A stretch of DNA of 64,000 bases. Origin: Rhodothermales bacterium. GTDB taxonomy: Bacteria > Bacteroidota > Rhodothermia > Rhodothermales > Bin80. The stretch spans positions 1 through 64,000 of the forward strand of contig JAJECE010000010.1 of the NCBI GenBank assembly GCA_022822185.1, written 5' to 3'. The translations under genes were made by a program, and so were the position numbers. Positions 10,467 through 15,485 of this stretch are shown here, piece by piece. The notes under the pieces were generated by a model. It was not told the DNA's origin and did not search any database. It saw only the letters and a program-made list of their open reading frames with translations. Within the stretch, counting starts at the first letter, position 1. Each line of letters opens with the position of its first letter.

Positions 10467-12023
10467 TCATTGGGAGGGTTTCTCGTTTTGCTCATCAAAG
10501 AGCGTCGGCATTGCACCGGGAATTTTTCGCTTGAAGTGCGTATAGGCCCGTTTCGTTGCGATCCGTCCCCGGGAGGTGCGCTGCATGTACCCTTCCTGAA
10601 TCAGGTAGGGTTCGTACACTTCTTCAATCGTTCCTGCTTCTTCGCCCACCGAGACCGCCAAAGTGGAGAGTCCGGCAGGGCCCCCGTCAAATTTATCAAT
10701 CAGGCTCAGAAGAATACGCGTATCCATATCGTCTAGTCCTTCGGTGTCCACATCCAGAGCCGTCAGTGCCCGGTCTGCGGTTTTGAGACTTATACAACCA
10801 TCTCCCTCCACCTGTGCAAAATCCCTTGCACGGCGCAGGAGGCGATTTGCGATGCGCGGGGTCCCCCGACTGCGGCGGGCGATTTCCCATGCCCCCTCTT
10901 GTTCAATGGAAACGTCAAGAATGTTCGCGGAACGGGTCAGAATGGCTTGAAGCAGTTCTGCACTGTAGTAGTCATATCGAAAATCAATCCCGAACCGGCT
11001 GCGCAGGGGGGCGGTCAATAACCCTTTTCGGGTGGTTGCTCCGACCATCGTAAACCTGGGGAGTGGAATCTTTACGCTTCGTGCATTTGGTCCGCTGTCA
11101 ATCACAATATCAATATAGTAATCTTCCATCGCCGAATAGAGGTACTCTTCGACTAGCGGGGAGAGCCGGTGCATTTCATCAATGAACAGAACATCGCCTT
11201 CCTGGAGTTTGGTCAGGATCCCTGCCAGATCTGCCGGCTTATCCATGACGGGGCCGGATGTGGTGGTGATGGTGGCCCCCATTTCTTCTGCAATAATATG
11301 CCCTAGTGTGGTGTTATGATTGCAGAATCCGTTTCCGATAAATGAGTGCGAACCTGGGACAACAAAATCAAAGGTTTCTGCCTCGGAGTGCACCCTGCCT
11401 GTGACCACCGCCCAATCAAATTCCCCTGTCGCTTTGGGTTTTTCAGCATGAAAACCTTCCAGGGCAGCCAGATCTCTGCCGGTGAGTCCGAGGCCCGCTG
11501 AATCCGCAGATTGGCGCTCCGGGCACACTAAAACTCCATCCCCGACCTGTATGGAAGCGAGGGGGCGCCAGGCCAGTGTACCCTGCTTTTCTGCCAATAG
11601 CGGATGTCTTGGCGTGCCTTCAATGGATTGTCCGCGATTCGTAGAGAGGCGGATCGTCGGCCCGCGCCCGCTCGCGTACACATGCGAGGTACGCTCTGCG
11701 CCCCCTGCCCCGATCACGGTCACCGCATGGGTTCTGGTTTGACCGGGTTGCAGGTTATCTGGAATCAGGCATCCCATCGGCACTCTGCCCTCGGGGGTCT
11801 CAATGGAGGTGTCTGCGGTCACACACTTGCCCAGCCCCGGCGGGCCGGACAAGAGAACATGATCCAGTGCCTCTCCGCGCTCTAGCGCCGCCCGCATGAA
11901 GATGCTCAGGTTCCCTTTGATTTTATCCTGCCCGATAAAATCTTTCAGCTTCTGCGGACGCAGTCGCTTCTCAAAGTCCTCATCATGCATTTTAGGTGCA
12001 ACCGTGCCTGTACGCTCAGTCAT
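10467..12023 (-). CDS. ruvB: Holliday junction branch migration ATPase RuvB, intein-containing precursor
   Basis: RuvB is the hexameric motor of the RuvAB complex that drives Holliday-junction branch migration. The chosen ATG at 12023 gives [20 protein letters not shown], the usual RuvB N-terminus; an upstream in-frame extension of 25 codons looks untranslated. The precursor is 518 residues: N-extein 66 residues ending GPPGLGK, intein 171 residues, C-extein 281 residues starting TTLGHII. The spliced protein would be 347 residues, normal for RuvB. Walker B is FIDEMHRL, followed by sensor 1 near MVGATTR, the arginine-finger region [12 protein letters not shown], and the winged-helix domain with [12 protein letters not shown]. 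It diverges from rpoN (129 bases between starts). Without splicing the P-loop would be split and the enzyme inactive. Confidence 0.95.
11313..11825 (-). other. mini-intein in the RuvB Walker A motif
   Basis: A 171-codon in-frame insertion lies between the Lys and Thr of the P-loop GPPGLGK^TTLG. Block A starts with Cys1 ([13 protein letters not shown]). Block B is EGTPRHPLL with the T-x-x-H pattern (Thr71, His74). Block F is [18 protein letters not shown], and block G ends FCNHN with the penultimate His and terminal Asn; the +1 extein residue is Thr. These are the residues needed for class 1 protein splicing (established knowledge). No LAGLIDADG or HNH endonuclease domain is present: only about 35 residues ([20 protein letters not shown]...) separate the N- and C-terminal splicing halves, so it is a mini-intein that cannot home on its own. 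Confidence 0.95.
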
Positions 12024-12152
12024 CGGTATATCGACGGCAAATTGTGTATTGCATAAATTGTCAGAATATCCTCTGTGCACTGCAAACCCCTTAGCCACCT
12101 GCTACGTTTCAAGTGCAGATTGCGACTAAACATAAGGATAGATTTTCAAACC

Positions 12153-13595
12153 ATGCTGAATCTGAGTCAGGAATTAAGGCTGCAGCAGAAGCTGTCTCCT
12201 CAGCAGATCCAGTATATCAAGTTATTGCAGTTACCGACCCTTGCTTTAGAGCAGCGCATTCAGCAGGAACTTGAGATGAATCCTCTTCTAGAGGATAGTC
12301 CCCAGGATGAACCCATATCGGGATCGGAAGAAGAGCCGCTGGAAAACAGCAACGATGAAGAATTTGATCTGGAAGACCTGCTTCCGGATGTAGATGACCT
12401 GTATGGCTACAAGGCACGCGTAGACGATCATCAGGAAGACCGGGAGATGCCGATCACGGCGGCAGAATCCATGACGGATTACCTGCGCAGCCAGAAAGGA
12501 TTTTTGAGATTCAACCGGCGGGACACTCTGATTGCCGAACAAATCATCGGATCCATTGACGAGGACGGCTACCTGAGGCGGGAACTTGCCTCTATCGTGG
12601 ATGACATCACCTTCAATTACCGGGAAGAACTCTCGGAAGAGGATGTTCTGAATGTATTGCGCTGTATTCAGCGGCTTGACCCGCCTGGCATTGCAGCACG
12701 CAATGTGCAGGAATGTCTGCTGATCCAACTGGAACTGATGTCCGAGGATACCCTTGGGCGTACGGTGGCGATCCAGATGATCACCAAACTGTTCCCGGCT
12801 TTTTCCCGAAGACAATATGGACGAATCAAAGAGCGCCTGAACATTGACGATGCAAGTCTCAAATCTTCGATAGACCTGATCCAGTCCTGCAATCCGAAGC
12901 CGGGTGAGGGGGCAATCACTCCTCAGGAAAACTATGTGATCCCTGATTTTCTGGTTCGCAAAGCAGACCAGACCTTTGTGATTCAGCTCAATTCGGGGAA
13001 TTTTCCAACCCTCTCGGTTTCCAAGCCTTACCGGCAGATGATGGAGCAGATGGTTGCGGAGAAGAAGTCAAATCCCGCAAAATCGTCGGATGCTCAGACC
13101 AAACAATTCCTTCGTTCCAAACTGGAGTCAGCCAAATGGTTTATCGATGCCGTACAGCAGCGCCGCAAGACCATGCTCTCGGTCATGCGGGAGATTGTCT
13201 CCTTCCAGGAGGCCTTCTTCGCGTACGGGGAGGGGCATTTGCGTCCGCTGATCCTCAAGGACATTGCAACGCGGATCAACATGGACATTTCCACGATCAG
13301 CCGAGTGGTGAGCGGCAAATATGTTCAGTGTGATTTTGGGGTGTATGAACTCAAGTATTTTTTCTCGGAGGGCGTTGCCACGGATGCTGGCATCAGCGTC
13401 TCCAACAAAGAGGTCAAGTCCATCATTGCGGGGATGATTGAGCAGGAGAACAAGACCCGCCCCCTGACGGATCAGGAACTCACGGCGAGTTTGAAGGAAC
13501 AGGGCTATCACATTGCACGCCGGACGGTTTCCAAGTACCGGATGCAGTTGGGGATGCCGGTTGCCCGCCTCCGCAGGGAGATTGTTTTAGACTGA
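12153..13595 (+). CDS. rpoN: RNA polymerase sigma-54 factor
   Basis: A 480-residue sigma-54. The start at 12153 gives MLNLSQELRLQQKLSPQQIQ, the Gln/Leu-rich region I that contacts enhancer-binding activators; a longer frame starting at 12075 lacks family support. An acidic region II (about residues 48-85, EEEPLENSNDEEFDLEDLL) follows, then the core-binding domain with QRLDPPGIAARNVQECL, and the DNA-binding part with a helix-turn-helix (DISTISRVVSGKYVQ). The RpoN box is ARRTVSKYRM near the C-terminus, followed by LGMPVARLRR. A purine-rich 'aaggat' lies upstream of the start. Divergent from ruvB. No sigma-54 activator gene is present in the window. Confidence 0.95.
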   Translation: MLNLSQELRLQQKLSPQQIQYIKLLQLPTLALEQRIQQELEMNPLLEDSPQDEPISGSEEEPLENSNDEEFDLEDLLPDVDDLYGYKARVDDHQEDREMPITAAESMTDYLRSQKGFLRFNRRDTLIAEQIIGSIDEDGYLRRELASIVDDITFNYREELSEEDVLNVLRCIQRLDPPGIAARNVQECLLIQLELMSEDTLGRTVAIQMITKLFPAFSRRQYGRIKERLNIDDASLKSSIDLIQSCNPKPGEGAITPQENYVIPDFLVRKADQTFVIQLNSGNFPTLSVSKPYRQMMEQMVAEKKSNPAKSSDAQTKQFLRSKLESAKWFIDAVQQRRKTMLSVMREIVSFQEAFFAYGEGHLRPLILKDIATRINMDISTISRVVSGKYVQCDFGVYELKYFFSEGVATDAGISVSNKEVKSIIAGMIEQENKTRPLTDQELTASLKEQGYHIARRTVSKYRMQLGMPVARLRREIVLD

Positions 13596-13783: not shown

Positions 13784-14227
13784 TCACTTGACATCCAACT
13801 GATCACAGATATCGGGAACCTTGCGATTCGCTCCCTCTTTTGAGGGTTGAGAAACCTCATGGGTAACCACAATACGGCATTCTGGATATTCCAGTGCTGA
13901 TGCAATAAGAAACGGATCAGCACCAACCTTCTTTATATCCATTTCGGTGAGGTTTTCCCCGTACGCCTCAGACATCACCTTCCGAACGAGTTCCAGGCTT
14001 TCCTTTTTTATAAGAACTAGGCTCTCCTTGCTACTTTTGATCCATTTGTCGAATTTCTTGTTTTCCGGCCGAATTTCGGGATATACGGAAAGATGTATTT
14101 TACAAACATCCTTTCTGGACTGAAAATACAGCCATTCCCAAAATTCCGGCACACGATCATATCCATAGTAACTGTCGTGAACACTGATCACAGAACTGGA
14201 ATCAAGAAGATACACCGACTGAACCAT
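13784..14227 (-). CDS. DUF4411 family PIN-like protein, C-terminally cut by TGA
   Basis: A protein of about 147 residues starting VYLLDSSSVISVHDSYYGYD, with the N-terminal Asp of a PIN-like fold, EFWEWLYF, and ADPFLIASALEYPECRIVVT near the C-terminus (second acidic cluster). This matches DUF4411 proteins, PIN-like presumed RNases often encoded next to XRE-ImmA genes. The ATG at 14227 is preferred over a TTG one codon upstream. The frame ends at TGA after PDICDQLDVK, but reading past the TGA gives MSTIDFIKKLNFK, which resembles the usual family C-terminus, where a Cys often occupies the stop position. The protein thus appears truncated by a late nonsense change. It lies 13 bases after the peptidase gene (10 bases if the TTG is used), probably in the same operon. 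Confidence 0.75.
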   Translation of the reverse strand: MVQSVYLLDSSSVISVHDSYYGYDRVPEFWEWLYFQSRKDVCKIHLSVYPEIRPENKKFDKWIKSSKESLVLIKKESLELVRKVMSEAYGENLTEMDIKKVGADPFLIASALEYPECRIVVTHEVSQPSKEGANRKVPDICDQLDVK

Positions 14228-14240
14228 CAATTCATATCAT

Positions 14241-15485
14241 TTAAGATTCCAACAGTCTAGAAACCTGACCGGGTTTAGCTGCCAAGATGATCGCCGCCTT
14301 GGAGACCGTAAGATTTTCCAGTTGTATCATCTGCTTGACGAACTGAAGCAGCCCATTACCCAATTCACTACGCCGAACACGATAAAAACTGGGACCTCCG
14401 GATTTTTCATCCTTCTGTGCTTCTTTCTTCCGATTCTGAGATCTCTCCCACTCTTTTGCGTAAAATTGATCCAGTTGTAGAGATACCGCATGCGTAATCA
14501 CCCGTTCCTGATGCAGCCTTGTTGCCACCATCCTGTGACTGAGATTTCGTTTTTTCGCTACTCGGGATATGACATCCTTGAGTTCCGAGAGATCTACGTT
14601 CCAGTCGATCTGTCCTTCCCTGATCAATGCTGCGGGGAACAGCCACTGTCCCGCCACACGATTACAGAATTTTTCGATTGGATTTATCGATTGGAGATCA
14701 CTATCACTGATGCCTGTTTGATCAAGCAGCAGATGGACAATTTCGTGTAGTACAGAAAATGACATCGCAGATATGGAATCTTCTTTATTGATCACCATAA
14801 AGGGAGCAATGTCATCTGCGATCACAAATGCTCTAAACAAATTGGAGGACAACTTATTGTGACCGCCCCCTGGATTCCCCTTTAGAACAACGAATATACC
14901 GGACTCCTCACACGAGGATCGAAGCAGTCTGAACGCAGATGGTGAATCAGATTGTCCGTAGTACTTGTCTCTGGTACACCGATCTCCTAGCACCATGCCC
15001 AGTCCGTCTAATGCATCCCGAACCAGACGCTCTTTCTGCCCCTGTGTCATGTTCTGAAGTTCCGCCCCCATGATTTCTGGTTCTTTCGGCAGATCCCATT
15101 TTCGTCTCAACCAACCTACAAACGGAAGTGAAGTACACTCTTCCTCCGACTCCAAAATATCCCTGATCATTCCCTGACTGGCCTTTGCGTATCGCAGCAG
15201 TGCCGCAATCAGAGCCTTATCTTTGGGCTCGATTTGTTCAGACAGTCCACGGAAATCAGCACCGTAGTCTGATTCAACCGGAATATCCTCCAAATAGAAC
15301 GTCAATAATGGGCGCCTATATTTGTCGGCCATTTTGAGAAGCATTGGATGTGACGGGGCTTTCTCCCCCTTCTCAATTTTCTTTAGGCTCTTCTCCGCCA
15401 CACTGATCTTAGTTGCCGCTTCCTGTAGTGTCAATCCCGCAGTTTCACGTGCCCAAATCAGGATTTTGGGATTCACATGTATCAT
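14241..15485 (-). CDS. XRE-family HTH/ImmA-IrrE-type metallopeptidase
   Basis: A 414-residue protein. Residues about 5-62 form an XRE helix-turn-helix (ILIWARETAGLTLQEAATKI, SVAEKSLKKIEKGEKAPS). A peptidase domain at about 180-300 carries H247-E-I-V-H251 in SFSVLHEIVHLLL, the zinc HExxH motif, with a downstream NRVAGQWLFPAAL segment that supplies the third ligand region in this family. ImmA/IrrE peptidases cleave repressors or antitoxins. Together with the downstream PIN-like DUF4411 gene it forms the known pairing described as toxin-antitoxin-like (family knowledge). The direct DNA target is unknown; autoregulation at the region upstream of 15485 is plausible but not shown. Confidence 0.88.
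   Translation of the reverse strand: MIHVNPKILIWARETAGLTLQEAATKISVAEKSLKKIEKGEKAPSHPMLLKMADKYRRPLLTFYLEDIPVESDYGADFRGLSEQIEPKDKALIAALLRYAKASQGMIRDILESEEECTSLPFVGWLRRKWDLPKEPEIMGAELQNMTQGQKERLVRDALDGLGMVLGDRCTRDKYYGQSDSPSAFRLLRSSCEESGIFVVLKGNPGGGHNKLSSNLFRAFVIADDIAPFMVINKEDSISAMSFSVLHEIVHLLLDQTGISDSDLQSINPIEKFCNRVAGQWLFPAALIREGQIDWNVDLSELKDVISRVAKKRNLSHRMVATRLHQERVITHAVSLQLDQFYAKEWERSQNRKKEAQKDEKSGGPSFYRVRRSELGNGLLQFVKQMIQLENLTVSKAAIILAAKPGQVSRLLES

What the first reader, a model, noticed from the sequence alone, without database searches (positions are those of the whole stretch)
11313..11825. Mini-intein splitting the RuvB P-loop
The sequence shows a 171-codon in-frame insertion exactly between Lys and Thr of GPPGLGK^TTLG, with Cys1, the block B T-x-x-H motif, and C-terminal His-Asn followed by Thr, all that class 1 splicing needs. 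It has no homing endonuclease domain. Removing it restores a 347-residue RuvB. P-loops are common intein sites in ATPases, but I cannot say whether this exact RuvB site is already described. Because RuvB must be spliced to bind ATP, splicing could act as a control point on recombination; that part is inference.
Basis: partly seen in the sequence, partly recalled or inferred. Interest (0 to 1): 0.78.

Follow-up and report, generated by a model that had tools for sequence, protein, structure and literature searches.

The report
Mini-intein splitting RuvB's ATP-binding loop
In a Rhodothermales bacterium the only gene for the DNA-repair motor RuvB is interrupted by a small self-splicing protein element that should have to cut itself out before RuvB can bind ATP; relatives carry the same element with and without its mobility enzyme, so it is a clear but not unprecedented example of a tamed intein.

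Summary
Window 11313-11825 (minus strand) is a 171-residue in-frame insert between Lys and Thr of the RuvB P-loop. It looks like a class 1 mini-intein: curated intein N- and C-terminal models match over cut-off, the predicted fold matches the Mxe GyrA intein at Z 20, and Cys1, block B Thr/His, block F Asp and terminal His-Asn are invariant in 13 of 13 family mini-inteins. The 98.8% complete genome has one RuvB match, this one. The site is not unique: a P-loop-Cys pattern hits 17 of 114 genomes of the order, 10 of 10 in the genus. Full-length, LAGLIDADG-bearing inteins sit at the same bond in other Rhodothermales and Anaerolineae, and inteins with an apparently decayed endonuclease in Thermoleophilia. 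The insert is under purifying selection. Most likely a homing intein that lost its endonuclease and became fixed in a genus. RuvB is already listed as an intein host in a 2018 review, and P-loop mini-inteins are known in DnaB. Verdict: new member of a known kind. Splicing and its regulation are untested.

The parts
10470..12098 (-). ruvB precursor frame, 543 codons from GTG 12098 (likelier start ATG 12021-12023, 518 codons; start not tested); stop codon 10467-10469
   Evidence: RuvB_N, AAA_lid_4, RuvB_C; NF000868 and TIGR00635 over cut-off; single match in genome
11826..12023 (-). N-extein (66 residues from the ATG), ending GPPGLGK of the Walker A / P-loop
   Evidence: numbering (K66, C67)
11313..11825 (-). 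mini-intein, 171 residues, Cys1 to Asn171, no endonuclease domain found
11823..11825 (-). Cys1, nucleophile of the N-S acyl shift (role inferred from known class 1 inteins)
   Evidence: invariant in 13 of 13 family mini-inteins
11604..11615 (-). block B T-P-R-H, Thr71 to His74 (block names recalled)
   Evidence: Thr and His invariant in 13 of 13; numbering
11367..11369 (-). block F Asp153
   Evidence: invariant in 13 of 13; numbering
11313..11318 (-). block G penultimate His170 and terminal Asn171 (Asn cyclisation, role inferred)
   Evidence: invariant in 13 of 13
10470..11312 (-). C-extein (281 residues) starting Thr+1-Thr-Leu-Gly; Thr+1 is also the P-loop Thr

Best explanation
A class 1 type, cis-splicing mini-intein occupies the K^T bond of the RuvB Walker A motif. 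The precursor folds; Cys1 attacks its own preceding peptide bond, the thioester passes to Thr+1 of the C-extein, Asn171 cyclises and releases the intein, and the exteins join by a peptide bond to give a 347-residue RuvB with an intact P-loop. Thr+1 is both splicing nucleophile and P-loop threonine, so ATP binding should be impossible before splicing. By descent it belongs to a set of inteins of this RuvB site: longer forms with LAGLIDADG endonucleases appear to move among Rhodothermales and Chloroflexota, while in the window's family the endonuclease is gone and the remnant is fixed in a genus, probably kept because imprecise removal would destroy an only-copy ruvB. Shown: sequence, predicted fold, conservation, single copy, distribution, purifying selection. 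Inferred: that splicing occurs, its chemistry and rate, endonuclease activity in relatives, and the reason for retention.
For: Exact in-frame insert with all class 1 residues; intein N- and C-terminal models over cut-off; AlphaFold model (mean pLDDT 75.8) matches solved inteins: Foldseek top hit Mxe GyrA intein E 1.2e-10, VIA-align Z 20.1 over 150 residues, rmsd 2.2 (4oz6_A). One RuvB match in a 98.8% complete genome, RuvA present. Catalytic residues invariant in 13 of 13 family mini-inteins; in the 7 of 45 genus pairs with insert dS below 1, dN/dS 0.127-0.334 in the insert and 0.039-0.071 in the extein. Same bond in 17 of 114 genomes of the order, 10 of 10 of the genus, 13 of 16 of the family, and in longer inteins of 450-512 residues with LAGLIDADG_3 over cut-off in the 3 scanned from Rhodothermales and Anaerolineae (L035, L038, L045). 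The window insert scores 84-95 bits against the 5 long RuvB inteins of Rhodothermales and Anaerolineae, 54-62 against the 4 of Thermoleophilia, and 17-34 bits against 4 DnaB and 1 DnaE inteins of the same order.
Against: No splicing was observed; it cannot be here. Pfam Intein_splicing is below its curated cut-off for this insert. The intein model is weak at residues 105-117 and 123-134; the precursor model was unusable (mean pLDDT 53.6). Hedgehog autoprocessing domains share the fold (Z 17.7), so fold alone does not prove an intein. The splicing-domain tree does not resolve whether the family mini-inteins arose once: one clade in 16% of bootstraps, not rejected (p-AU 0.528).
Confidence: 0.95

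Rival explanations
1. Conditional splicing: the intein has been co-opted as a post-translational switch, so that RuvB activity is released only under certain redox, metal or DNA-damage conditions.
For: Endonuclease-free yet found in 10 of 10 genomes of the genus; P-loop position; Cys1 needed for the chemistry; a Cys three residues before the terminal Asn in 8 of 10 genus members. A P-loop mini-intein in mycobacterial DnaB is blocked by a disulfide under oxidation (PMC6195587, passages seen).
Against: Fixation without an endonuclease is equally expected from the difficulty of precise removal. The extra Cys is missing in 2 of 10 genus members and in 3 of 3 other family mini-inteins, so it is not a conserved device. 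No expression or splicing data.
Confidence: 0.12
2. Decayed intein that no longer splices; RuvB is lost in this species.
For: No experiment shows splicing; Pfam Intein_splicing is below cut-off.
Against: The catalytic residues are kept, and both insert and extein are under purifying selection; an extein dN/dS of 0.04-0.07 is hard to square with a dead gene.
Confidence: 0.02
3. Assembly chimera or contamination.
For: Draft genome of 132 contigs.
Against: Same insert at the same bond in 9 of 9 other genus genomes, 97% identical precursor in G003; contamination estimate 0.72.
Confidence: 0.01

Closest known systems
Longer inteins at the same RuvB K^T bond in Rhodothermales and Anaerolineae (found here: L053, L054, L038, L035, L045)
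   Same: identical insertion bond, Cys1, HN^T, related splicing domain (84-95 bits)
   Different: 450-512 residues; LAGLIDADG_3 over cut-off in the 3 scanned (L035, L038, L045), DG-type motifs seen by eye only in L053 and L054; sporadic, e.g. 1 of 13 genomes of genus g19
Mycobacterium smegmatis DnaBi1, P-loop mini-intein of DnaB (PMC6195587, passages seen)
   Same: endonuclease-free, in the P-loop, the +1 P-loop hydroxyl residue doubles as splicing nucleophile
   Different: class 3 mechanism and Ser+1; host is DnaB; splicing shown and redox-sensitive
Mycobacterium xenopi GyrA mini-intein (1am2, 4oz6)
   Same: best fold match, Z 20.0-20.1, and best PDB sequence match E 7.1e-6; HN followed by Thr+1 (recalled)
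   Different: 24-25% identity; host GyrA
RuvB as listed bacterial intein host (Table 1 of PMC5874633, passage seen)
   Same: same host protein
   Different: the row gives no species, site or sequence; whether it is this site cannot be told

Membership tests
class 1 intein | in-frame insert in a conserved host protein whose removal restores it | tested here: met
   15 loci of relatives without the insert (L018-L032) read K and T side by side at this bond
class 1 intein | Cys or Ser at position 1 and intein N-terminal blocks | tested here: met
   Cys1; TIGR01445 29.7 bits against cut-off 24.5
class 1 intein | block B Thr..His | tested here: met
   Thr71, His74 invariant in 13 of 13
class 1 intein | C-terminal His-Asn followed by Cys/Ser/Thr | tested here: met
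   HN^T; TIGR01443 17.8 bits against 15.6
class 1 intein | Hint fold | tested here: met
   predicted model only; Z 20.1 to Mxe GyrA intein
class 1 intein | Pfam Intein_splicing over its curated cut-off | tested here: not met
   29.3 bits against 35.8, E 8.9e-7; a library threshold, not a biochemical feature; 3 of 7 other RuvB-site inteins scanned also fall below it
class 1 intein | self-splicing activity | not testable with these tools
   needs expression
mini-intein | no homing endonuclease domain | tested here: met
   171 residues; no Pfam endonuclease family at E up to 1, against LAGLIDADG_3 over cut-off in 3 longer relatives
RuvB | RuvB domains and curated RuvB models | tested here: met
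   RuvB_N, AAA_lid_4, RuvB_C; NF000868 469.6 bits against 282
class 3 intein (considered) | no Cys/Ser at position 1 (recalled) | tested here: not met
   Cys1 present in 13 of 13

The most novel reading that the evidence does not exclude
In this Rhodothermales genus the endonuclease-free RuvB intein is kept because its splicing is conditional, making Holliday-junction branch migration switchable after translation, with Cys1 (and, in 8 of 10 species, a Cys near the terminal Asn) as sensor.
Probability: 0.1. Interest if true: 0.7.

Novelty: new member of a known kind. Interest (0 to 1): 0.36.

Why it matters
The RuvB K^T bond shows the steps of the proposed homing cycle side by side: empty sites, long inteins with endonuclease, inteins with an apparently decayed endonuclease (Thermoleophilia), and mini-inteins of 138-182 residues, present throughout one genus. 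It adds a clear P-loop case in a recombination motor and a set of closely related natural mini-inteins for asking whether P-loop inteins are tolerated passengers or switches. The single insert is otherwise ordinary for an intein.

Tried and rejected
Second ruvB in the genome: none found. Phage or plasmid source: 29 RuvB relatives in viral contigs, 29 of 29 with Thr or Ser directly after the P-loop Lys in the motif read, so no insert there; the scan patterns came from the extein, so a viral intein in another gene would be missed. In 50,697 phage records the insert matched 3 records, all Staphylococcus phage Twort (helicase, 31% over 58% of the insert); no match in plasmids. Single origin of the mini-inteins: unresolved. 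Co-conversion beside the G038 long intein: flanks 94% and 97% identical to empty-site G028, no sharp gradient; nothing concluded. Precursor structure: model too poor to use. Literature: searches for intein with RuvB (14 papers), Holliday junction helicase, P-loop terms, Rhodothermales (no paper), other helicases, Holliday junction with P-loop. I looked inside three papers only: PMC5874633 (passages; RuvB in a table), PMC1193525 (passages; inteins mentioned in a figure legend, none tied to RuvB) and PMC6195587 (passages); the rest were seen as listings. The main catalogue I know of (doi 10.1093/molbev/msv271) is not held, so whether this exact site is in print could not be settled. G016 gave no RuvB-length match and is not counted as empty.

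Full report
OBSERVATION. The minus-strand frame 12098-10470 encodes RuvB split by 171 codons between Lys and Thr of GPPGLGK^TTLG. Coordinates 11313-11825 are exact. The curated intein end models match over cut-off; Pfam Intein_splicing matches below cut-off. The PDB sequences matched best are the Mxe GyrA and Pho RadA inteins (E 7.1e-6 and 2.7e-5).

STRUCTURE. An AlphaFold model from 11 aligned mini-inteins (the window and 10 loci of the scan) has mean pLDDT 75.8, weak at 105-117 and 123-134. In the longer relatives the endonuclease lies between the first 104 and last 38 residues, which align with the mini-inteins. In one search (50 entries listed) the first ten rows are inteins, Z 18.7-20.1; Hedgehog autoprocessing domains, which share the fold, follow at 17.7 and 17.4. 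The precursor model was not used.

ONE COPY. The genome gave one RuvB match, one RuvA over cut-off, a DnaB matched end to end without a break and one further Pfam intein match, in a 1311-residue protein that reads as DnaE (recognised by eye).

DISTRIBUTION. Of 59 genomes, 15 carry the insert (G000-G010, G012, G013, G026, G038). In 43 the two RuvB pieces lie side by side and meet at the P-loop bond, as at an empty site (15 of these were read directly; the others judged from the match coordinates). G016 gave no RuvB-length match. Two stop codons flagged for G010 do not lie in its 542-codon frame, which is open through both exteins and the intein. A DNA pattern for DH-x-[FILMV]-[FILMV]-x-GPPG-[FILMV]-GKC hits 13 of 16 genomes of the family, 17 of 114 of the order (13 of 16 in the family, 4 of 98 elsewhere: G026, G038, G432, G433) and 10 of 394 drawn from the phylum, all 10 in the order; the backward control pattern shows no hit in the rows listed. 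In the collection of 84,980 species a stricter pattern hits 20 stretches: 12 titled Rhodothermales, Rhodothermaceae or Bacteroidetes/Bacteroidota, 5 Thermoleophilia, 3 Anaerolineae or Anaerolineales. All 20 read, by eye, as RuvB followed by an intein start; 17 hold the whole intein and 3 are cut by the end of the stretch or frame read (L037, L041, L052). The sets overlap: 10 of the 12 have the contig lengths of genus or family genomes, and L038 and L041 seem to be G433 and G432 (contig number and position). So the scan adds 8 loci outside the order. These patterns miss Ser1 inteins, other RuvB sites and contigs under 3 kb.

FORMS. Intein lengths: 138-182 in the window's family (13); 450, 508 and 510 in other Rhodothermales (L038, L054, L053); 508 and 512 in two Anaerolineae; 420-476 in four Thermoleophilia. 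Pfam was run on 7 of these: LAGLIDADG_3 is over cut-off in L035, L038 and L045 (E 2.3e-15, 1.4e-18, 5.5e-20), below cut-off in L036 (E 0.066), and absent in L049 and in the mini-inteins L050 and L051. In 10 genomes outside the family or the order (L035-L041, L045, L049, L052) there is one RuvB each over the curated cut-off.

HISTORY. Long inteins of Rhodothermales are 53-57% identical to each other and 45-50% to those of Anaerolineae, while exteins fall from 74-77% to 52-55%: this fits movement between phyla but does not prove it. The tree does not reject all Rhodothermales inteins as one clade (p-AU 0.17). In genus g19 only G038 of 13 genomes hits the pattern, and its extein is nearly that of empty G028 (97% DNA identity in the C-extein), which fits recent gain. 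In the window's genus the mini-intein is in 10 of 10 and forms one group (98/100). On the extein tree presence or absence of an intein needs at least 6 changes over 34 rows. Empty G011 and G015 lie inside the family tree, so loss or separate gains occurred; which is not settled. G014, also empty, was not put in the tree.

SELECTION. The extein set was the last 60 residues of the N-extein plus the C-extein. Over 45 genus pairs most dS exceed 1 or are saturated; in the 7 with insert dS below 1 the insert has dN/dS 0.127-0.334 and the extein 0.039-0.071 (Nei-Gojobori type counts by my script). Pairs are not independent. The insert evolves faster than the extein but is constrained, which fits a need to splice.

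MECHANISM. From established class 1 chemistry (recalled): N-S shift at Cys1, transfer to Thr+1, Asn171 cyclisation, acyl shift to a peptide bond. Thr+1 is also the P-loop Thr. The mycobacterial DnaBi1 paper describes the same double role for a P-loop Ser, and says that the P-loop intein in Pyrococcus RadA disrupts ATPase function (PMC6195587, passages).

KNOWN OR NEW. A 2018 review lists RuvB among bacterial intein hosts, without site or species, and names the P-loop as a frequent site (PMC5874633, passages). In the searches I saw no other account of a RuvB intein, but I opened only three of the papers listed, and the main catalogue is not held. The verdict is a new member of a known kind.

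Noticed in passing
L056 1408-5343 (own genome C118): A second mini-intein (158 residues) in a protein that reads as DnaE, between GYGFNK and SHSVAYS.
   Followed up: partly
L062, L063, L064, L065: DnaB P-loop inteins (PSMGK^C...HN^T, 254-496 residues) in two other genus members, one other family member and one genome of another family of the order; the window's own DnaB is uninterrupted.
   Followed up: partly
L036, L039, L040, L049: Thermoleophilia RuvB inteins of 420-476 residues; LAGLIDADG_3 is below cut-off (L036) or absent (L049) in the two of four scanned, perhaps a middle stage of endonuclease loss.
   Followed up: partly
window 13787-15485 (-): DUF4411 protein beside an HTH plus Peptidase_M78 protein; the arrangement recalls toxin-antitoxin pairs (recalled, not tested).
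   Followed up: no
window 12153-13592 (+): rpoN (sigma-54) divergent from ruvB.
   Followed up: no
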